38,730 bases of DNA from Hydrogenophilus sp. (lineage in GTDB: Bacteria > Pseudomonadota > Gammaproteobacteria > Burkholderiales > Thiobacillaceae): positions 1 to 38,730 of the forward strand of contig JAIMKU010000014.1 in the NCBI GenBank assembly GCA_020692235.1. Direction: 5' to 3'. The position numbers were made by a program, and so were the translations under genes. The notes under the pieces are model-generated. The model did not search any database, had not been told where the DNA came from, and worked only from the letters and a program-made list of their open reading frames with translations. Each line of letters starts with the position of its first letter. Position 1 is the stretch's first letter. This document shows, piece after piece, positions 6,329 through 30,846 of the stretch.

Positions 6329-7722
6329 GACTGGGTCCCCAGCGCGGCCAGCTTGATCGGCGTCTGACCAACCGATCCGGCGCCCATGGTCAGCACCACG
6401 TCGCCGTCCTGGACGAAATCAGCTATCGCCGCCGGCAGGTCGGCCACCTCGGGCACGAACACCGGTTCCACCCGGCCGGCCACCCGCACCGCCCGGGCCA
6501 GGCTACGGCCATCGGCGGCGACGATGGGTGCCTCGCTGGCGGCGTAGACCTCGGTGAGCAACAGCGCATCGACCAGCGACAAGACCTGAACGAAGTCCTC
6601 GAACAGGTCGCGGGTCCGGGTGTAGCGATGCGGCTGGAAGGCCAGTACCAGACGACGGCCGGGAAAGGCGCCGCGAGCGGCCGCCAGGGTGGCGCGCATC
6701 TCGACCGGGTGATGGCCATAGTCGTCGACCAGGGTGAAGCGGCGGCCATCGGCCAGATGAATCTCGCCATAACGCTGGAAGCGCCGGCCGACCCCGGAAA
6801 AACCGGCCAGCGCCCGTTGCACCGCGACATCGGGAATCTGCAACTCCCAGGCCACTCCGATCGCTGCCAGGGCATTCAGGACGTTGTGCATACCCGGCAG
6901 GTTGAGGCGAATGTCGATCGGCGAGCGGGTGCCGTTGCGTAGCGCGGTAAACGCCATCCGGCCATCCTCAACCCGGATGTTCACTGCCTGGATGGTGCAA
7001 TCGTCGGTGCTGCCGTAGGTCATTAGCGGTTTTTCGATCCGGGGCAGCAACTCGCGCACCACTGGATCGTCGGCGCACAGCACCGCCATGCCCCAGAACG
7101 GCAAGCGATGGAGGAAATCGACGAAGGCGGACTTCAAGCGTTCGAAATCGTGGCCGTAGGTCTCCATGTGGTCGGCGTCGATATTGGTGACCACGGATAT
7201 TGCCGGAGACAGGTGCAGGAATGAGGCATCCGACTCGTCCGCCTCAGCCACCAGCCACTCGCCCTTGCCCAGCTTGGCGTTGGCGCCGGCGGCCAGGAGC
7301 TTGCCGCCGATGACGAAGGTCGGGTCCATGCCGGCCTCGGCCAGCACGCTGGCGATGAGGCTGGTGGTGGTGGTCTTGCCGTGGGTGCCGGCGATGGCTA
7401 CGCCCTTCTTGAAGCGCATCAGTTCGGCCAGCATCATGGCCCGCGCCACCACTGGGATGTGGGCGGCGCGCGCGGCCTGCACCTCCGGGTTGTCCTGCTT
7501 GATGGCGCTGGAGACCACCAGCACGTCGGCGCCGGCCATGTTGCCGGCAGCATGACCCAGGAATACCTCGGCGCCCATGCCGGCCAGGCGGCGGGTCGCC
7601 GCGTTGTTGCTCGCGTCGCTGCCCGAGACCTGGTAGTTCAGGCTGAGCAGCACCTCGGCGATGCCGTTCATGCCGGCGCCGCCGATGCCGACAAAATGAA
7701 TCCGATGCACCTTGTGTTTCAT
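6325..7722 (-). CDS. murC: UDP-N-acetylmuramate--L-alanine ligase MurC (start trimmed to [10 protein letters not shown])
   Basis: [43 protein letters not shown]; 4-nt overlap with murG supports this start over the longer ORF. Confidence 0.98.
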
Positions 7723-8849
7723 AGCGCCACCTCCTTGACGATGGCGGCCATCCGCCGCGCGGCATCGGGCTTGCTCAGGGCGTGGGCGTGTTCGGCCCGG
7801 CGCAGCAATTCGGTCCGGGTCAGGCTGCCCAGCCAGACTGCCAGCTCGTCCGCGCTCAGCGTGTCCTGAGGTAGTAGCCACGCGGCGTTGGCATCGACTA
7901 GAAAATGGGCATTCAGGGTCTGGTGGTCGTCCACTGCGTGCGGGTAGGGCACCAAGCCGGCCGGCACTCCGGCTACCGCCAGCTCTGCCACCGTCGAGGC
8001 GCCGGCGCGGCAGATGGCCACGTCGCACCAGGCATAGGCCGAGGCCATGTCGTCGATGAATGCCAGACACTCGGCCGCGACCCCTGCGGCGGCATAGTTG
8101 GCCTTGAGGGCATCGATATGTTTGGCGCCGGACTGGTGTCTGGCTTCCGGCCGCACCTCGGCCCGCATCTGGGCCAGGGCGCGCGGCACGACATCATTGA
8201 GCGCCTGCGCGCCCAGGCTGCCACCGATCACCAGCAGACGCAGTCGGCCCTCGCGTCCGGCATAGCGTTCGGCCGGCGCGGGCAGGGCGGCGATCTTCGT
8301 CCGCACCGGGTTGCCTACCCATTCGGTCTTGACCTTGCCGCACGGCAGAGGTTTGTCCATGCCTTGCTCGAAGGCGCCGGGCAGGCCGAGCAAAACCCGT
8401 TTGGCCAGGCAGGCGAGCACTCGGTTGGTCAGCCCGGCCACGGCATTCTGTTCGTGGATGACCAGCGGCTTGCCGCTCAGGGCCGCCATCGCCCCGCCCG
8501 GAAAGGCTACGTAACCGCCCAGGCCGACCGCCACGTTGGGTTTGACGCGGCGGATGACGCGGCGCGCCTGGCGGAAGGCGATCAGCATCTGGAACGGCAG
8601 CTTGATAAGGCGTGCCAGGCCCTTACCGCGGACCCCGGCGAAATCGATCCAGACCATCTCGAAGCCGCGTTCACGCCCGATGCGGGCCTCCATGCCTTGC
8701 CGGGTACCCAGCCAGACCACACGCCAGCCGGCGTCGCGCAGCACCTCGGCCACCGCCAGCGCCGGCATGATATGGCCGCCGGTACCGCCGGCCATGACCA
8801 GGGCGGTATGCAAGGGACGCGGGCGGGTCGCCTCTTGGCCAAGAATCAT
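7719..8849 (-). CDS. murG: UDP-GlcNAc:lipid II glycosyltransferase MurG
   Basis: [51 protein letters not shown]. Confidence 0.99.
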
Positions 8850-10006
8850 TGCCGTTTACCTTTCATCAAGCGCCGATTCTCGAAGTCAATCCGCATCAGT
8901 AGCGCGATGGCCAGACAGTTGGCGACAATGCCGGAACCGCCATAGCTCATCAGCGGCAGGGTCAGACCCTTGGTCGGCAACAGGCCGAGATTGACGCCCA
9001 TGTTGATGAGGCTTTGCACGGCAAGCCAGATGGCGATCCCCTGGGCGGTCAGGGCCTGAAAATTGCGACCCATGAGCGCGGCCTGCCAGCCGATCGCGAA
9101 GGCCCGCCAGATCAGCCAGGCGAATAGGCCGACAATCGTCATGACACCCACGAAGCCGAGTTCCTCGCCGGTCACAGCGAGCAGGAAGTCGGTATAGGCC
9201 TCGGGCAGATAGAATAGTTTTTCCACGCTCTCGCCCAGACCGACGCCAAACCATTCGCCCCTTCCCAGTGCGATCAGTGCGTGGGTGAGCTGGTAGCCCT
9301 TGCCATAGGGATCGGCCCATGGGTCCATGAAGCCGATCACCCGTTGCAAGCGATAGGGCGACAGCCAGGTCAGCAGCACGAAGCCGATCGCCAGCATGAC
9401 GATCAGGCCGCCAAGCAACCGTCCGTTGAGGCCGCCCAGGAACAGCACGGCCAGGGCGATGGCGACGATGACCACGAAGGCACCGAAGTCCGGTTCCATC
9501 AGCAGTAGCCAGCCGACTACCAGCATGGCCATGAACATCGGCATGAAACCCTGCCTCGGGTTTTGCATCAGGGCCGCCTTGCGTACCGCGTAATCGGCGG
9601 CGTAGATCACGGTGAACAGCTTGGCCAGTTCCGAGGGCTGAAAATTGCCCAGCGGCCCGAGTGGAATCCAGCGTTGGCTGCCATATACCGCTCGGCCCAA
9701 CCCCGGTATCAACACCGCGATTAGAGCGATAACCAGGCCGAAGAACAGATAGGGCGCCATCTTCTGCCATAGGCTGGAAGGCAGTTGGAAGGCGCTGTAG
9801 GCGGCGGCCAACCCAACCACCAGGTAAGCGGCGTGGCGCATCAGGTAGTAGGTCGACTGATGATTGGCGCTCTTGGCCTCGGCGATGGCGGTGGACGCCG
9901 AATAGACCATCACCAGGCCCAGGCCGAGCAGGGCGAACACCGTCCACAATAGCGACCAGTCGATCGGCGCCAGCGAGGTGCGGCGGACGGCGGCGTTATT
10001 GAACAT
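8846..10006 (-). CDS. ftsW: Peptidoglycan glycosyltransferase FtsW (SEDS)
   Basis: Polytopic; GSQRWIPLGPLGNFQPSELAKL, GKGYQLTHALIALGRGEWFGVGLGESVEKLFYLPEAYTDF, PLMSYGGSGIVANCLAIALLMRI. Confidence 0.99.
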   Translation of the reverse strand: MFNNAAVRRTSLAPIDWSLLWTVFALLGLGLVMVYSASTAIAEAKSANHQSTYYLMRHAAYLVVGLAAAYSAFQLPSSLWQKMAPYLFFGLVIALIAVLIPGLGRAVYGSQRWIPLGPLGNFQPSELAKLFTVIYAADYAVRKAALMQNPRQGFMPMFMAMLVVGWLLLMEPDFGAFVVIVAIALAVLFLGGLNGRLLGGLIVMLAIGFVLLTWLSPYRLQRVIGFMDPWADPYGKGYQLTHALIALGRGEWFGVGLGESVEKLFYLPEAYTDFLLAVTGEELGFVGVMTIVGLFAWLIWRAFAIGWQAALMGRNFQALTAQGIAIWLAVQSLINMGVNLGLLPTKGLTLPLMSYGGSGIVANCLAIALLMRIDFENRRLMKGKRQ

Positions 10007-20993: not shown

Positions 20994-21587
20994 CTACAGT
21001 ACCTCGAAGCCCACCGCTTTCAGTAATTCGGAAGTCTCGAACAGCGGCAGCCCCATAACCCCGGAATAACTGCCCGATAGCCGTGCCACGAATAACGCCG
21101 CGCGGCCCTGAATGCCATAGCCGCCGGCCTTGTCGTAGCCTTCCTTGCTGGCCACGTAAGCGGCTATTTCTGTTTCTGAGAGCGGCTTGAAATGCACCTC
21201 GCTCTCGGAAATGGCCGACTCCAGGCGGCCGCCCAGGGCGACTGCAACGCCAGTCAGCACGGTATGGGTGCGGCCCGAATAACGACGCAGCATAGCGGCC
21301 GCCTCGTCGGCGTCGGCCGGCTTGCCGAGGATGGCGTGGTCTATCGTGACCGTGGTGTCCGCCGCCACGACCGGCAGGACCGGCAACCTGCGCTCGGCGA
21401 TGGCCTGCACCCCGGCCTCGGCCTTGCGCCGGGCAAGACGAGCAACATACGCTACAGCATCCTCACCGGGCAGCGGGGTCTCGTCGATAACGGCGCCTAG
21501 ACGCAGCGCGGTCGGCAGAAGGCCGATCTGGCGCAACAGTTCGAGCCGGCGCGGACTTTGCGAGGCGAGGTAAAGCGGTTTGCTCAT
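20994..21587 (-). CDS. maf: Maf-family nucleoside triphosphate pyrophosphatase (full-length copy)
   Basis: LYLASQSPRRLELLRQIGL, VVAADTTVTIDHAILGKPADADEAAAMLRRYSGRTHTVLTGVAV. Confidence 0.96.
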   Translation of the reverse strand: MSKPLYLASQSPRRLELLRQIGLLPTALRLGAVIDETPLPGEDAVAYVARLARRKAEAGVQAIAERRLPVLPVVAADTTVTIDHAILGKPADADEAAAMLRRYSGRTHTVLTGVAVALGGRLESAISESEVHFKPLSETEIAAYVASKEGYDKAGGYGIQGRAALFVARLSGSYSGVMGLPLFETSELLKAVGFEVL

Positions 21588-21606
21588 GATGGCTGGATTC
21601 TACCTT
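21492..21606. repeat. 115-bp direct repeat, copy 1 (5' end of full-length maf plus leader)
   Basis: ggcgcctagacgcagcgcgg...ggctggattctacctt, identical to 22640-22754 (offset 1148). Confidence 0.97.
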
Positions 21607-21607
21607 G

Positions 21608-21688
21608 TTAATCCCGGTGATATGGATGATTGGCCAGTAGCGTCCAGGTCCTATACAACTGCTCGACCAGCAGTACGCGGGCCAGTAG
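21608..21688 (-). pseudogene. rlmH: rlmH C-terminal fragment
   Basis: Reverse strand reads [26 protein letters not shown], matching the conserved RlmH C-terminus (EQLYRAW...NHPYHR); sequence upstream of it is not RlmH. Confidence 0.9.
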
Positions 21689-21935
21689 CAAAAAGGAGGG
21701 GGCCGGGCTCGAATCAATTTCGCGTCCCTTGCCAGTGGGGTGCGGGCATTTTCCTGGTGGCGATTACGCGTCAGCCACGCCATGCCGTGGAGCCAATAAA
21801 AGCTCGCACAAGGTCAGATTTGGCGCAGCCAAAAAGAACAACCGAACAGGGCAATCATTGGTGCTAAAGCGCGCTTCTTGTTAAAAAATCCGAATCGGAC
21901 TAACATTAGTCCACAAAATCGAGGTGAGGTATATT

Positions 21936-22178
21936 ATGCAAACCGTCAACATCCATGAAGCCAAGACACAGTTCTCCCGTTTTGTTGATCGAGCGGAGGC
22001 AGGCGAGGAGATCGTGATTGCCCGCGCAGGTAAGCCAGTCGCGCGTTTGGTGGCATTGGAAAGTGCATCACTTAAGCCGCGCAAGTTGGGCTTGGGTAAA
22101 AAGCAATTTTCCTTTCCTGAGAAATTCGATGACTTGAGTGCTGGCGACATTGCCGATATGTTCGAGCACGGCAAATAA
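21936..22178 (+). CDS. Type II antitoxin, Phd/YefM family
   Basis: MQTVNIHEAKTQFSRFVDRAEAGEEIVIARAGKPVARLVALE; RBS gaggtgagg upstream; abuts the PIN toxin. Confidence 0.93.
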   Translation: MQTVNIHEAKTQFSRFVDRAEAGEEIVIARAGKPVARLVALESASLKPRKLGLGKKQFSFPEKFDDLSAGDIADMFEHGK

Positions 22179-22586
22179 ATGGCCGAACATGTTTATCTGC
22201 TGGACACCAATGTGCTGCTCGCGGCATTGCTTGCTCCGGAACGTTTGCCGCCGGAGGTGGTTGCCGGTTTAACGGATGCGTCAAATACCGTGTATTTCAG
22301 TGCAGCCAGCACCTGGGAAGTGGCCATCAAGCGCTCGCTGCATCGTGCTGATTTTGATTTCTCGCCTGAGGATATTCATCGGCTGGCACTGGACACAGGC
22401 TTTACCGAGTTGCAGGTGAAGGGAGAGGATTGCTACCCGCTGGTGAACCTGCCTTGGCATCACCGAGATCCATTTGATCGTTTGCTGATCGCACAGGCGC
22501 AATCCTTGCCCGCTTACCTGCTGACGACAGATAGCGTGTTGAGTCAATACACTGAATTAGTTATTCGCCTGACCTTGGAACCTTAA
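22179..22586 (+). CDS. Type II toxin, PIN-domain ribonuclease (VapC-like)
   Basis: YLLDTNVLLAALL, SAASTWEVAIK, HRDPFDRLLIAQAQ, LLTTDSVLSQY: PIN acidic residue pattern. Confidence 0.93.
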   Translation: MAEHVYLLDTNVLLAALLAPERLPPEVVAGLTDASNTVYFSAASTWEVAIKRSLHRADFDFSPEDIHRLALDTGFTELQVKGEDCYPLVNLPWHHRDPFDRLLIAQAQSLPAYLLTTDSVLSQYTELVIRLTLEP

Positions 22587-22618
22587 GCACATTTCACAAA
22601 GGAAAAAGGCCCCGCGAG

Positions 22619-22735
22619 TTAAAAAGAATTAAGAGACCAGGCGCCTAGACGCAGCGCGGTCGGCAGAAGGCCGATCTGGCGCAACAGTTCGAGCCGGCGC
22701 GGACTTTGCGAGGCGAGGTAAAGCGGTTTGCTCAT
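22619..22735 (-). pseudogene. maf: Truncated duplicate of maf (38 codons)
   Basis: MSKPLYLASQSPRRLELLRQIGLLPTALRLGAWSLNSF*; first 33 residues identical to full maf, then a non-maf tail. Confidence 0.92.
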
Positions 22736-22754
22736 GATGGCTGGATTCTACCTT
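22640..22754. repeat. 115-bp direct repeat, copy 2
   Basis: Identical to 21492-21606. Confidence 0.97.
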
Positions 22755-22827
22755 TGATGTATTCGCCTTCGGCGGTTTCGGCCCAGGCGGGCAATTTGTC
22801 GCCGACGGCCAGTATCAGTAGTTTCAT
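22735..22827 (-). pseudogene. rlmH: rlmH N-terminal fragment, terminating at the start of the duplicated maf
   Basis: MKLLILAVGDKLPAWAETAEGEYIKGRIQPS*; first 25 residues match the RlmH N-terminus, tail encoded by the maf leader. Confidence 0.9.
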
Positions 22828-23082
22828 GGTGGCGACTATAGCAAAGCCCGCGTCGCAGCCTTGTGCTGTGTTGGCGCCCAATGCACCCGTCGAAGTGGTG
22901 TACACGCCACCTCGCCACCGGGCCGCGTTACGTCTGGGCGCTCCTGCTGGCGTGCATCTACCTGGCCAGCAAAGTTTTGACTTGACTTGGAATGTAATTT
23001 AAGGTACAAAAGCACCATTATTATTATAATAAATAAGGCCGTTAATAATGGCTATATCCCTTGTTGATATTGAGGAGACAAC

Positions 23083-24228
23083 ATGAACGAAGATGCTGGT
23101 TTTTTTCGCAAACTACCCAGCGCCCTACCGGGTCTGGCCCTGATCGTTTTGACCATGGTGGTGATACGTAACTGGATCGAGCCATGGATGTCAACCGCAG
23201 TCGTATTCGGAATGAAGGGTTGGCTGGTCAAGGCCACGCACCTTAATTACATTCTGCTGGGCATCATCTTGGGAATGCTCTACCGCAATGTGATTTTCGG
23301 TGGAAAAATGCCCGCTGTCCTGAGCGACGGATTCAAGCTCTCCCGTCTCATGATCAAGACCGGTATTATTTTGCTGGGCTCGCTCTACACGGTTAACGCC
23401 ATCGTGCAGCTCGGCTCCATGGCGATCATCCTGATAGGCGGTTTCGTGATCCTGACCATCATCATGGTGTTGTGGTTCGGCACCATGCTGGGGCTTGACC
23501 GCTCCATGATCGGCGTCATGGCGAACGCGCTGAGCATCTGCGGCGTCAGCGCCGCTGTGGCCACTTCGCCGGCCGTTGAAGCCAAGGCATCGCATGTGGC
23601 CTACGCCATTGCCACCATTCTGGGCTTCGGCGTCCTGACCATGTTCATCAGCCCCTTCATCGGCCACGCATTGGATCTCACCGACTTGCAGTATGGCGCC
23701 TGGATCGGCACCGGCATTCTCAATTCCGGTCAGGTATTGGCGGCAGCGCTGGCGTTCAATCCCAACATAGCGCCGGGCACGGCGGCGTCGGTGGCGGAAG
23801 TCTGGAACATCATGCGCGTGATCTCTATCCCCTTCGCCGTGTTCGCTGTCACCGTCTGGTATTGGGCCGGCAAAACAGAATTGGGAGAAGGTGGCAAACG
23901 CAAAGGGCTGGGTACCTTGCTGGTCGAGAAATTTCCGGTGTTCGTGCTCGGCTTTTTAGGCATGGTGTTCCTTACCAGCATGGGCACGTTTGGTGATGTG
24001 GGCCTCAAAGGCGGTCCCGCAGCCTCCGATACCGTCAAAATGATGCGTCTGTGGATGACCTGGATCTTCGGCTTCGGCTTGGTCGGACTCGGTGGCTATA
24101 TTGATTTCAAGGAACTCCGCCAAGCCGGCGGCGCGCCGCTCAAGCTTGGCCTGATTGTGGGTGTCACCAAATATGTACTGGCATTGGTGGTGGTATTCCT
24201 GATCAAAGATTACTTGGTTGCAATTTAG
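23083..24228 (+). CDS. YeiH/UPF0324-family polytopic transporter (putative sulfate exporter family)
   Basis: About 10 hydrophobic segments; MIKTGIILLGSLYTV, MANALSICGVSAAVATSPAVEAKASHVAYAIATI, IGTGILNSGQVLAAALAF. Confidence 0.85.
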   Translation: MNEDAGFFRKLPSALPGLALIVLTMVVIRNWIEPWMSTAVVFGMKGWLVKATHLNYILLGIILGMLYRNVIFGGKMPAVLSDGFKLSRLMIKTGIILLGSLYTVNAIVQLGSMAIILIGGFVILTIIMVLWFGTMLGLDRSMIGVMANALSICGVSAAVATSPAVEAKASHVAYAIATILGFGVLTMFISPFIGHALDLTDLQYGAWIGTGILNSGQVLAAALAFNPNIAPGTAASVAEVWNIMRVISIPFAVFAVTVWYWAGKTELGEGGKRKGLGTLLVEKFPVFVLGFLGMVFLTSMGTFGDVGLKGGPAASDTVKMMRLWMTWIFGFGLVGLGGYIDFKELRQAGGAPLKLGLIVGVTKYVLALVVVFLIKDYLVAI

Positions 24229-24255
24229 TAAAATCAACTGCTAGGAGAATGAATC

Positions 24256-24498
24256 ATGGCTAAAACAGGTAGCGAAACCATTGGCGCCACAGGCGATAAA
24301 GGCAAAATGACTTTGTTCAAGGATGACCGCGCAGAGGACATCGGCGCGATTATCATGGCCGTACTCGTCGTTGCCGCAATCATGGTCTTGACCATGAATA
24401 AACCGGCCGCCCAACCGGCAGCACCCGCTGCTCCTGCGGCAACCGCTGTCGCTCCGGTCATAGCGCCGATGGCGCCCGTTGAACCGGTAAAGAAATAA
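24256..24498 (+). CDS. Small single-TM protein with Ala/Pro-rich C-terminal tail
   Basis: 80 aa; RBS taggaga; hydrophobic segment IGAIIMAVLVVAAIMVLTM followed by NKPAAQPAAPAAPAATAVAPVIAPMAPVEPVKK. Confidence 0.75.
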   Translation: MAKTGSETIGATGDKGKMTLFKDDRAEDIGAIIMAVLVVAAIMVLTMNKPAAQPAAPAAPAATAVAPVIAPMAPVEPVKK

Positions 24499-24512
24499 GA
24501 ATCGGCGGCTTC

Positions 24513-24962
24513 GTGGGATTTAAAAACGTTGTTGTTGCGGTAGATGGTTCTGAAGCCTCGCAAGAGGCGTTGAACTGTGCCATAGAGTTGGCCCGTCAGA
24601 GCAAATGCGCCCTGACGGGCCTTTTTATTATCGACGGCGGCTGGCCCGATTATATTGGTAACGATTGGCAATCATCCAAAGGCGCGCGTCAAGGCTTTCT
24701 CGATTACATCCGCAAGGAGCAGGAAGAGCAGGCGGACGCGGCGCGTAAGCAATTCGAAGTAGCCAGCGCAGGGATGGCAACGGCATTCTCGCTGCTGAGT
24801 GGCGATCCAACCGAAGAGTTGCTCAAAATTGCCAATGCAGCAAGCACCGACATCTTTGTCATCAGCCGTCGGGTCTTCCAGGTAAGCGGACGGCCCAGCC
24901 TAAAATCCCTCGCCAAGACCCTGGCGCTAAAAGCCACGCGCCCCCTGTTGCTTCTTCCCTGA
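24513..24962 (+). CDS. Universal stress protein (UspA-like), GTG start
   Basis: FKNVVVAVDGSEASQEALNCAIELAR N-terminal Usp signature; C-terminal ...SLAKTLALKATRPLLLLP. The canonical G-x2-G-x9-G-S/T ATP motif is not obvious. Confidence 0.85.
   Translation: MGFKNVVVAVDGSEASQEALNCAIELARQSKCALTGLFIIDGGWPDYIGNDWQSSKGARQGFLDYIRKEQEEQADAARKQFEVASAGMATAFSLLSGDPTEELLKIANAASTDIFVISRRVFQVSGRPSLKSLAKTLALKATRPLLLLP
24591..24629 (+). terminator. Intrinsic-terminator-like hairpin inside the usp coding sequence
   Basis: GCCCGTCAG (24591-24599) / CTGACGGGC (24612-24620), 9-bp perfect stem, 12-nt loop, followed by CTTTTTATT. Confidence 0.6.
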
Positions 24963-25117
24963 TTTTCCTCGCAGCAAAAAGGGTAGAGCAGAGGACAGGC
25001 TACTGTATTCCGCAGGTCAAGCTATCTGTTGCTGCACCTTCCCGTCTGGCGGCGAATAATTTGTAGCAATAAGGTTGTATGTCGCCTATTAACTATATAT
25101 AAACTGTATAAGCGGTA

Positions 25118-25129
25118 TATAATTACCGA
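25118..25129 (+). promoter_or_regulatory. Candidate -10 element (TATAAT) immediately upstream of hipB; possible leaderless start
   Basis: TATAAT 25118-25123, six nt, then ATG at 25130; no Shine-Dalgarno visible; AT-rich TATA repeats upstream. Confidence 0.45.
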
Positions 25130-25450
25130 ATGAGCCAACTACTATTTAACACCCCGAACGAACTTCAGCACCTTCTGGGTGAGCGGATAAGGCGGCTACG
25201 CCTGAACCGCAACCTGGATCAGCGCACCACGGCGGAAAAAGCCGGTATCTCCGAGAAGTCCTTGCGTAATCTCGAGTCCGGGCGGGGTTCGACGGTAGAA
25301 ACCCTATTGCGCACACTAAAAGCACTCGAATATCTGCAAGGAATCGATATGCTGGCCCCGGAAACCAGTGTTAATCCGCTTGACTTGCTACGCCAGTCCA
25401 AGGCGCCGCAACGTGCGCGGCGAGTGAACAAACAGGCACGGGAAGACTGA
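25130..25450 (+). CDS. HipB-like HTH (XRE) antitoxin/regulator
   Basis: LGERIRRLRLNRNLDQRTTAEKAGISEKSLRNLESGRGSTVETLLRTLKAL; directly upstream of hipA-like gene. Confidence 0.92.
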   Translation: MSQLLFNTPNELQHLLGERIRRLRLNRNLDQRTTAEKAGISEKSLRNLESGRGSTVETLLRTLKALEYLQGIDMLAPETSVNPLDLLRQSKAPQRARRVNKQARED

Positions 25451-25453
25451 TAC

Positions 25454-26743
25454 ATGGATACCCCGGTCATCGAGGTTCGCATCTGGGGGCAACGCATCGG
25501 TGCAGTGGCACCCGATCCGCGTCTTGGCTGTTATGTGTTCGCCTACGAGCCCGCCTGGCGGCGCACCGGTATCGAGTTGGCGCCATTGACCATGCCGCTG
25601 GATGACCCTCGGCAGAACTTTGCCTTTCCCGAGCTTGCCGAGCCGAGCTATAAACGTTTACCCGGGCTCCTCGCCGATGCCTTGCCGGATGATTTTGGCA
25701 ATGCCCTGATCGATGCCTGGATGAGCGCCAAGGGCGTCGAGAAACGCGCCATCACCACACTCGACCGCCTCGCCTACATGGGCAAACGTGGCATGGGCGC
25801 GCTGGAGTTCAAACCTGCGCGCGGTGCCCATCGAGAAAGTGCCGAACCCCTCGAAATGAAAAACCTGGTGGAGGCGGCGCGCAAGGTCGTCCATGGCGAC
25901 TTGTCCGGCGATGTTCATGCCCAGGCCGCGTTGGCCAACATCATCCGGGTCGGCACCTCGGCCGGCGGCGCGCGTGCCAAGGCAGTCGTCGCCTGGAATC
26001 CGCAAACCGAACAGATACGCAGCGGCCAGTTCGACGCCGCGCCTGGGTTCGAGCATTGGCTACTCAAGTTCGATGGCGTCGGCAAGGACGCGGAACTGGG
26101 TGGCAGCGCTAATTACGGCCGTATCGAATACGCCTATCACTTGATGGCCGAAGCCGCCGGCATCCACATGTCGCCATGCCGGCTGCTGGAAGAAAACGGC
26201 CGTGCTCACTTCATGACTCGCCGCTTCGACCGCGATGTCATCGAAGGCCAGACCATCAAGCACCACGTCCAGACGCTCTGTACCATGAGCCACCTCGACT
26301 ACAAGCAGCGAGGCACTCATGCCTATACCCAGCTATTCATGGCGATCGCCCAACTCAAGCTGGGCGACGAAGCTATCGGCCAGGTCTTCCGCCGCATGGC
26401 CTTCAACGTCATGACCAAGAACTGCGACGATCACAGCAAGAACTTCGCCTTCCGCCTGAAGCAAGGGGGTAATTGGCAACTGGCCCCGGCCTATGACGTG
26501 ACTCACGCTTACAACCCCAAGGGCGAGTGGACCTATCAGCACCTGATGAGCGTGAATGGCAAATTCAGCGGCATCAGCCGCGCCGATCTGCTGGTCGAAG
26601 CCGACCGCTTCGGCGTCCGCCGACCGCTGGATGTATTCGCCGACGTCAATAATGCCTTGGATAACTGGTCAAAGTTCGGCCGCGAGGCCGGCTTGGACCA
26701 GAAAACCATTGCCGAGAAACGTGCCGACTTTGAACTGATATGA
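25454..26743 (+). CDS. HipA-like serine/threonine kinase toxin
   Basis: LPGLLADALPDDFGNALIDAW, GTSAGGARAKAVVAW, HWLLKFDG, MTRRFDRD, NVMTKNCDDHSKNFAF, WQLAPAYDVTHAYN. Confidence 0.94.
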   Translation: MDTPVIEVRIWGQRIGAVAPDPRLGCYVFAYEPAWRRTGIELAPLTMPLDDPRQNFAFPELAEPSYKRLPGLLADALPDDFGNALIDAWMSAKGVEKRAITTLDRLAYMGKRGMGALEFKPARGAHRESAEPLEMKNLVEAARKVVHGDLSGDVHAQAALANIIRVGTSAGGARAKAVVAWNPQTEQIRSGQFDAAPGFEHWLLKFDGVGKDAELGGSANYGRIEYAYHLMAEAAGIHMSPCRLLEENGRAHFMTRRFDRDVIEGQTIKHHVQTLCTMSHLDYKQRGTHAYTQLFMAIAQLKLGDEAIGQVFRRMAFNVMTKNCDDHSKNFAFRLKQGGNWQLAPAYDVTHAYNPKGEWTYQHLMSVNGKFSGISRADLLVEADRFGVRRPLDVFADVNNALDNWSKFGREAGLDQKTIAEKRADFELI

Positions 26744-26804
26744 ATTAATCGCCGCCAGCAAATACCATTCCCTTCAAGTCCGACATATCTGCTAGGGCAA
26801 AGCA

Positions 26805-26875: not shown

Positions 26876-27451
26876 TTACAGGTTATAAGCCCGCTCGCCG
26901 TGGCTGGCGGTATCGAGGCCTTCGCGTTCTTCCTCTTCCGAGACGCGCAGCTCGATGGTCAGGTCGATCAACTTGAACACCACGAAGGCGACCAGGCCGG
27001 ACCAGATCAAGGCGGTCAGTACCGCTTGCGCCTGAATCCAGACTTGAGCGCCGATCTCGGTATCGATGACCTTGTTGTTGACGTAGTCGACGATGCCGGT
27101 GCCGCCCATGGACCAGGTGTTGAACACGCCGGTCAGCAGCGCGCCGAGGATGCCGCCGATGCCGTGGATGCCAAACACATCCAGCGCGTCGTCGATATGC
27201 AGCATCCGCTTCAGGTCGGTGACGCCCCACAGACAGACCACACCGGCCAGGGCGCCGATGGCCAACGCGCCGCCGGCACCGACCCAGCCACAAGCCGGGG
27301 TGATGGCGACCAAACCGGCCACCGCGCCGGATGTGGCCCCCAGCATTGATGGCTTGCCCTTGAGCAGCCGCTCGGCGAGGGTCCAGGTCAGCGCCGCCGC
27401 CGCCGTGGCGTTAAGGGTGTTGACGAAGGCCAGCGCCGCCGTACCACCGGC
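26876..27451 (-). pseudogene. amt: Ammonium transporter Amt, C-terminal remnant
   Basis: Open frame AGGTAALAFVNTLNATAAAALTW...MLGATSGAVAGLVAITPACGWV...EREGLDTASHGERAYNL*; N-terminal half absent; preceded by in-frame TAA 27454-27452. Confidence 0.9.
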
Positions 27452-27766
27452 TTACAGCGCCGAGCCGGCGTTGAAGCCGAACCAGCCCACCCACAGCAGT
27501 GAAGCGCCGATCTTGCCGGATTGGGCTGCCTTTTGAATGGCCTCGATGGCTTGGTCGAGCCGGTCGGCCATGACGGCGACCTCGACCTTGACCTTGGGCA
27601 GAAAATCCACCACGTACTCGGCGCCCCGGTATAGCTCGGTATGGCCCTTCTGGCGGCCGAAGCCCTTGACATCCGTGACGGTAATGCCGGACACGCCCAA
27701 CGTGGCCAGTGCTTCACGCACCTCGTCCAGCTTGAATGGCTTGATGATGGCGGTAACGAATTTCAT
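27452..27766 (-). CDS. glnK: GlnK-type PII protein truncated at its C-terminus and fused in frame to an Amt segment
   Basis: MKFVTAIIKPFKLDEVREAL...T-loop DVKGFGRQKGHTELYRGAEYVVDFLPKVKVEVAV...AAQSGKIG|ASLLWVGWFGFNAGSAL*; last 17 residues are Amt (LWVGWFGFNAGSA). Confidence 0.9.
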   Translation of the reverse strand: MKFVTAIIKPFKLDEVREALATLGVSGITVTDVKGFGRQKGHTELYRGAEYVVDFLPKVKVEVAVMADRLDQAIEAIQKAAQSGKIGASLLWVGWFGFNAGSAL

Positions 27767-30553: not shown

Positions 30554-30846
30554 ACCACAAGGCGCTCGAATCCTGGCGCGAGGAAAAACGCTCGGCCTAT
30601 CTCTATCGTCTGGTTTCGGATGCCGAATCGGGCACGGCGCGACAAATGCTGTTCCTGGAACTGGCCCAGGCGGCGGAACGGCAAGCGGAGCTCTGGCAAG
30701 CGGAGATCGGCAAGGCGGGCGCCACATTAAGCTTGTTTACCGGGCGCAAGGCCTGGCGGGGCGGCGCCCGGATGCTGCTGATCGGCGCGGCGGCGGGCGC
30801 GGCCACCTGGGCCATCGGGCGGGCGCTGGGGGTGGCCCTGAGTTAG
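30550..30846 (+). CDS. Small protein with ferritin-like/VIT1-CCC1-family N-terminus-like sequence plus a C-terminal hydrophobic segment
   Basis: EEKRSAYLYRLVSDAESGTARQMLFLELAQAAERQAELWQ; 4-nt overlap with comM. Confidence 0.6.
   Translation: MNHKALESWREEKRSAYLYRLVSDAESGTARQMLFLELAQAAERQAELWQAEIGKAGATLSLFTGRKAWRGGARMLLIGAAAGAATWAIGRALGVALS

What the first reader, a model, noticed from the sequence alone, without database searches (positions are those of the whole stretch)
21492..22827. rlmH split and mostly replaced by a Phd/VapC-type toxin-antitoxin pair, with a 115-bp duplication of the maf start
Seen in sequence: 25 N-terminal codons of rlmH (22827 downward) and ~26 C-terminal codons (21608-21688) flank ~1.1 kb carrying an antitoxin/PIN toxin pair on the opposite strand. 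The middle of rlmH is absent from the window. The 115 bp at the start of maf is perfectly duplicated at the far boundary, joined directly to rlmH codon ~25. The expected rlmH-maf adjacency is known in many proteobacteria. Inference: duplication plus deletion accompanied TA acquisition, removing the 23S rRNA pseudouridine-1915 methyltransferase. The perfect repeat suggests recency.
Basis: partly seen in the sequence, partly recalled or inferred. Interest (0 to 1): 0.75.

Follow-up and report, generated by a model that had tools for sequence, protein, structure and literature searches.

The report
Toxin-antitoxin insertion that broke rlmH
A small toxin-antitoxin gene pair from other bacteria has been inserted next to a ribosome-modifying gene (rlmH), duplicating a stretch of its neighbour and leaving rlmH in two useless pieces; related toxin-antitoxin pairs elsewhere also often sit between duplicated stretches, a pattern until now described for restriction-modification genes.

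Summary
A 115-bp stretch (maf codons 1-32 plus 19 bp upstream) is perfectly repeated at 21492-21606 and 22640-22754. rlmH survives only as 24 N-terminal and 25 C-terminal codons around an intact Phd/YefM-PIN toxin-antitoxin (TA) operon. The rest of the genome (1.8 Mb, 97% complete) holds no other rlmH; the 60 relatives searched all have it.

A same-genus genome (89% identical DNA) supplies the empty site, intact maf-rlmH-amt. It fixes the breakpoints: insert 21686-22639; left copy of the target 21492-21685 (194 bp); right copy cut to 115 bp by a 394-bp deletion at a 2-bp microhomology. Best reading: TA insertion with long target duplication, leaving both genes whole, then a deletion that killed rlmH.

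"Insertion with long target duplication" is known for restriction-modification systems. Across 193 loci of this TA family, close direct repeats bracket the module in 19, against 36 of 1726 control positions (p = 5e-7; pre-specified replication set p = 0.009). Some hits are ordinary repeats. The pattern may extend to canonical TA modules.

Loss of the 23S methylation is inferred, unmeasured. An assembly chimera cannot be excluded without reads. A second 3.96-kb insert (with HipBA) and a gutted amt-glnK show the locus is eroding.

The parts
20994..21587 (-). maf (Maf nucleotide pyrophosphatase), intact
   Evidence: PF02545 E=3.5e-58; ORF 197 aa
21492..21606 (.). left copy of the 115-bp perfect repeat: maf codons 1-32 plus 19 bp upstream; with 21607-21685 it forms the 194-bp left copy of the duplicated target
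   Evidence: the repeat finder; identity checked
21608..21685 (-). rlmH C-terminal fragment, 25 codons plus stop ([25 protein letters not shown])
   Evidence: PF02590 positions 132-154; alignment to the intact gene in L053
21686..22639 (.). insert 1, 954 bp, GC 51.5% against 62.8% for the window
   Evidence: boundaries from alignment to the empty site in L053; GC
21897..21912 (.). GGACTAA-CA-TTAGTCC, 7-bp-arm palindrome at the TA promoter, probable antitoxin operator
   Evidence: seen in sequence and in the alignment of related loci; found in 26 of 53 loci with toxin identity of at least 60%; function inferred
21936..22178 (+). antitoxin, Phd/YefM family, 80 aa
   Evidence: PF02604 E=4e-12; TIGR01552 E=2e-8
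22179..22586 (+). toxin, PIN domain, 135 aa, with acidic residues D9, E47, D97, D100, D118
   Evidence: PF01850 E=5e-9; these residues are at least 97% conserved in 160 aligned homologues
22640..22754 (.). right copy of the 115-bp repeat (dead maf start), truncated by the deletion that removed the middle of rlmH
22755..22827 (-). rlmH N-terminal fragment, 24 codons plus one base (MKLLILAVGDKLPAWAETAEGEYI)
   Evidence: 91% identical to L053 7367-7461; translation
22848..26803 (+). insert 2, 3956 bp, bracketed by GCAAAGC (22841-22847, 26797-26803): PF03601 membrane protein (YeiH type), universal stress protein, HTH-HipA pair
   Evidence: absent from L053 at this site; Pfam; 88% identical to another Burkholderiales family over 23073-24960
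26876..27515 (-). amt remnant with an internal stop, joined to the glnK remnant by a 960-bp deletion

Best explanation
A compact Phd/YefM-PIN type II TA operon, of a family common in Gallionellaceae, was inserted at the 3' end of rlmH together with about 240 bp of foreign flank. The insertion duplicated 194 bp of target (maf start plus the last 25 codons of rlmH), so a whole maf and a whole rlmH remained on either side of the insert. Later a 394-bp deletion at a 2-bp microhomology (TT) removed the second rlmH C-terminus and the middle of the gene, leaving 115 bp of the right copy fused to rlmH codon 24. rlmH is dead, so 23S rRNA should keep unmethylated pseudouridine 1915. The duplication probably persists because recombination between the repeats would delete the TA operon, and such cells would be poisoned by surviving toxin. 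Shown: anatomy, breakpoints, absence of another rlmH, recent duplication, recurrence of bracketing repeats in the TA family. Inferred: order of the two steps, the insertion chemistry, addiction as the reason for persistence, the rRNA consequence.
For: The empty site is seen in same-genus L053/G004: maf 6359-6952, rlmH 6974-7441 (155 aa) and amt are contiguous, with identity to the window ending at 21685 and resuming at 22753. The copies abut the insert on both sides, as a target duplication must. The deletion junction overlaps by 2 bp, and two other deletions near by (27505-27515, 30718-30728) show 11-bp overlaps, so microhomology deletion is ordinary in this lineage. Only a C-terminal rlmH hit exists in the genome, while 60 of 60 relatives have rlmH. 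TA homologues share only the block from about 21877 to the toxin stop, with unrelated flanks, so the operon moves as a unit. Close direct repeats bracket the TA in 19/193 loci against 36/1726 control positions (OR 5.1, p=5e-7; replication set 6/55 against 14/501, p=0.009). Clear cases: L191 562 bp 99% of a glycosyltransferase 3' end, L135 78 bp 94% of an efflux gene end, L125 79 bp of a gene start, L192 125 bp of an asnB start. Catalytic tail residues and SAM site of RlmH lie in different parts of the protein (PMC5430550), so neither fragment can work.
Against: The right copy of the rlmH C-terminus is not there, so the 194-bp duplication is inferred from geometry; only 115 bp is seen twice. 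No reads were available, and a 115-bp perfect repeat is a place where short-read assemblies can err. The enrichment is against random positions, not against insertions of non-addictive genes. Several hits are arrays, palindromic repeats or a group II intron end (L109, L229, L281, L284). Restricted to single repeat pairs, sets B and C alone are not significant (5/127 against 21/1213, p=0.09), and strict abutment is only weakly enriched (p=0.02 overall). No empty site could be found for L191.
Confidence: 0.6

Rival explanations
1. One-step template switching or illegitimate recombination: a broken or stalled fork at rlmH copied a foreign fragment and then 115 bp of the near-by maf start before rejoining, deleting 105 codons at once. 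No intermediate with an intact rlmH existed.
For: One event explains insert, copied 115 bp and deletion; short or no homology at the joins.
Against: The left copy abuts the insert exactly as a target duplication would. Other members of the TA family show duplications without a matching deletion (L135, L125, L191).
Confidence: 0.27
2. Assembly chimera or strain mixture: one variant carries a TA at the rlmH end and another a simple maf-to-rlmH deletion, joined wrongly through the repeat.
For: 63-contig draft assembly with no reads available; the repeat is perfect, as expected if both copies are one sequence.
Against: No second version of the locus in the assembly; contamination estimate 0.18%; the same architecture recurs in unrelated genomes. 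The TA-to-repeat join would still need a real junction.
Confidence: 0.1
3. Site-specific integration of a mobile element at rlmH, as SCC elements do at orfX/rlmH in staphylococci.
For: The same gene is hit, at its 3' end.
Against: The insert holds only the TA operon and no recombinase ORF. The repeat lies mostly in maf rather than in the rlmH end, and rlmH is destroyed rather than preserved.
Confidence: 0.03

Closest known systems
Insertion with long target duplication of restriction-modification systems (Nobusato 2000 and Furuta 2010, as cited in PMC3031569 and PMC3874152)
   Same: A selfish, addictive gene pair, no transposase, target duplications of the order of 100 bp and variable in length, associated with rearrangements.
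   Different: Here the cargo is a canonical Phd/PIN type II TA, and the duplication was followed by a deletion that killed a housekeeping gene. The original two papers could not be read here.
Phd/YefM-PIN (VapBC-like) type II toxin-antitoxin modules
   Same: Gene order, domains, conserved PIN acidic residues, palindrome at the promoter.
   Different: Nothing unusual in the module itself; no solved structure is close in sequence.
SCC elements inserted at rlmH/orfX in staphylococci
   Same: Insert at the 3' end of rlmH.
   Different: No ccr recombinase, no attachment-site structure, rlmH not preserved.

Membership tests
Phd/YefM-PIN type II toxin-antitoxin | antitoxin of the Phd/YefM fold directly upstream of a PIN toxin | tested here: met
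   PF02604 E=4e-12 and PF01850 E=5e-9, adjacent ORFs
Phd/YefM-PIN type II toxin-antitoxin | PIN acidic active-site residues present | tested here: met
   D9, E47, D97, D100, D118, each at least 97% conserved over 160 sequences
Phd/YefM-PIN type II toxin-antitoxin | toxicity neutralised by the antitoxin | not testable with these tools
   needs expression in a laboratory strain
Insertion with long target duplication | relative with an uninterrupted site and a single copy of the target | tested here: met
   L053 has maf-rlmH-amt contiguous
Insertion with long target duplication | direct copies of tens to hundreds of bp abutting the insert on both sides | tested here: met
   left copy ends at 21685 where the insert begins; right copy begins at 22640 where it ends; only 115 of the 194 bp remain on the right
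Insertion with long target duplication | recurrence at independent sites for the same module | tested here: met
   19/193 against 36/1726, with the cautions given
SCC-like element at rlmH | ccr or other site-specific recombinase in the insert | tested here: not met
   only the TA ORFs are plausible genes in 21686-22639
Functional RlmH (SPOUT methyltransferase) | full SAM-binding core plus C-terminal tail in one protein | tested here: not met
   105 of 155 codons absent; both regions are required (PMC5430550)

The most novel reading that the evidence does not exclude
Canonical type II TA modules, like restriction-modification systems, spread through chromosomes by a transposase-free route that duplicates 50-560 bp of target. 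The duplications, normally unstable, are held in place because excision through the repeats removes the antitoxin and kills the cell. TA modules would then be engines of partial gene duplication and, secondarily, of gene loss.
Probability: 0.35. Interest if true: 0.7.

Novelty: new variant of a known kind. Interest (0 to 1): 0.5.

Why it matters
How small TA modules with no transposase reach new chromosomal sites is unresolved. This locus gives before-and-after DNA for one insertion, and the survey suggests a shared architecture with restriction-modification systems, which can be tested directly. It is also a natural rlmH knockout in what is probably a free-living bacterium, and so a place to ask what the otherwise conserved m3Psi1915 is for.

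Tried and rejected
Intact rlmH elsewhere in the genome: none. tRNA attachment site: none in the window. Origin of the insert's left flank (21686-21876): no match among TA loci or within the genome. Plasmid relatives of the insert: one weak antitoxin match only. Viral-contig scan: the service gave no answer. Empty site for L191: no close relative held; for L125 the tool takes no such centre. Contig-end overlaps to infer the assembler's word length: no exact overlap found, so uninformative. SCC-like integration rejected (no recombinase). Literature searches for TA modules with flanking direct repeats or long target duplication found the phrase only in connection with restriction-modification systems.

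Full report
Setting. The window is a whole contig (C17) of a 1.82-Mb, 63-contig draft genome, 97.3% complete with 0.18% contamination. One same-genus genome (G001) has a 302,019-bp contig matching Parasulfuritortus cantonensis NZ_SJZB01000042 in length and in position of a match, so the organism is inferred to be a Thiobacillaceae (Burkholderiales) species. The minus strand carries the rlmH remnants, maf and the RNase E/G gene; the plus strand carries the TA pair.

Observation. The 115-bp repeat is exact. It spans maf codons 1-32 and 19 bp upstream, stopping one base before the rlmH stop codon on the left copy. The rlmH pieces are 25 codons plus stop (21608-21685) and 24 codons plus one base (22755-22827). 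PF02590 finds only the C-terminal piece in the whole genome, while all 60 relatives have the gene; G012 and G042 give partial hits only.

Empty site. Genome G004 (locus L053) is 89.7% identical over 7 kb. There maf (6359-6952), rlmH (6974-7441, 155 aa) and amt (7536-9047) are contiguous. Window identity to L053 runs to 21685, jumps to L053 6859-6972 for window 22642-22754, and resumes at L053 7367 for window 22753, a 2-bp overlap (TT). So 315 bp of rlmH is missing, 954 bp (21686-22639) is foreign (GC 51.5% against 62.8%), and 115 bp is duplicated.

Reconstruction. In plus-strand order the ancestor was maf-R-C-mid-N, where R is the repeat and C, mid and N are parts of rlmH. The window is maf-R-C-[TA insert]-R'-N. 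The left copy (R plus C, 194 bp) ends exactly where the insert begins and R' starts exactly where it ends. That is the geometry of an insertion with a 194-bp target duplication, R-C-[TA]-R'-C'-mid-N, which leaves both genes whole, followed by a 394-bp deletion from R' to N. Deletions with 11-bp overlaps near by (27505-27515, 30718-30728) show that such losses are common here. The order of the two steps is an inference; a single template-switching event would give the same product.

Age. No difference in 115 bp limits the divergence of the copies to about 2.6% (95%), against about 11% between this genome and G004, unless gene conversion has kept the copies alike.

The TA module. It is a Phd/YefM antitoxin and a PIN toxin with conserved PIN acidic residues and a 7-bp-arm palindrome at the promoter (21897-21912). 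The closest relatives are in Gallionellaceae (toxin 93% identical). Relatives align only from about 21877 to the toxin stop and have unrelated flanks, so the unit that moves is the operon with its promoter.

Is the duplication a one-off? In the first 69 testable related loci I saw direct repeats around about ten TA modules. A combined test with matched pseudo-positions in the same DNA gave 13/138 against 10/647 (p=2e-5). I then wrote down the test and applied it to new loci: 6/55 against 14/501 (p=0.009). Overall it is 19/193 against 36/1726 (OR 5.1, p=5e-7). Cautions: some hits are repeat arrays or a group II intron end (L109, L229, L281, L284); single-pair hits are 12/193 against 25/1726 (p=1.5e-4 overall, p=0.09 in sets B and C alone). 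At least two control hits themselves bracket other likely TA pairs (a HicB-like gene in L274; a DUF2442/DUF4160-like pair in L115; identified by eye from sequence). Clear cases are L191 (562 bp, 99%, glycosyltransferase 3' end), L135 (78 bp, 94%), L125 (79 bp, 87%, a gene start as in the window) and L192 (125 bp, 90%, asnB start).

Known precedent. Reviews state that some restriction-modification systems insert with long and variable target duplications of the order of 100 bp, without a mobile element (PMC3874152, PMC3031569). I found no such statement for canonical TA modules. Restriction-modification systems and TA modules share post-segregational killing, which would protect an otherwise unstable duplication. 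This is a hypothesis.

Consequence. RlmH needs its SAM-binding core and its C-terminal tail (PMC5430550), so neither fragment can be active. E. coli rlmH deletion strains are viable, with reduced capacity for exogenous protein synthesis (PMC7056703). Two RluA-family synthases remain, so pseudouridine 1915 is probably still made. The locus is eroding more widely: insert 2, a 960-bp deletion that fuses amt to glnK, an internal stop in amt, and a second amt with two stops.

Verdict. The finding is real in the sequence and mostly correctly interpreted. It is a new variant of a known kind of event. Its wider value lies in the TA-linked duplications, which need a better control than random positions.

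Noticed in passing
window 22848-26803: Second insertion, 3956 bp, between the rlmH start and amt, bracketed by the 7-bp repeat GCAAAGC: PF03601 (YeiH-type) membrane protein, universal stress protein, HTH-HipA pair. The first two genes are 88% identical to a genome of another family, and G004 holds a copy elsewhere. Two TA-type modules thus flank the rlmH remnant.
   Followed up: partly
window 26876-27720: amt and glnK are fused remnants: 960 bp present in G004 (L053 8176-9135) is deleted with an 11-bp overlap, and amt has an internal stop. The other amt in the genome (C20) has two internal stops, so ammonium transport may be lost.
   Followed up: partly
window 30718-30728: Another deletion relative to G004 (L053 12356-13082, 727 bp) with an 11-bp overlap at the join.
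   Followed up: no
L191 4471-5032 and 5910-6471 (reversed orientation): A related TA sits between 562-bp, 98.8% identical copies of the 3' end of a glycosyltransferase gene.
   Followed up: partly
L274 1492-2643 and L115 7903-9068 (L274 in reversed orientation): Control positions with long direct repeats turned out to bracket other likely TA pairs (HicB-like; DUF2442/DUF4160-like), hinting that the pattern is not limited to Phd/PIN modules.
   Followed up: no
genome contig C18, 1783-2067: rsfS and nadD lie apart from rlmH in this genome; rsfS is next to an HsdM-like gene. In the same-genus genome G004, rlmH neighbours amt instead.
   Followed up: no
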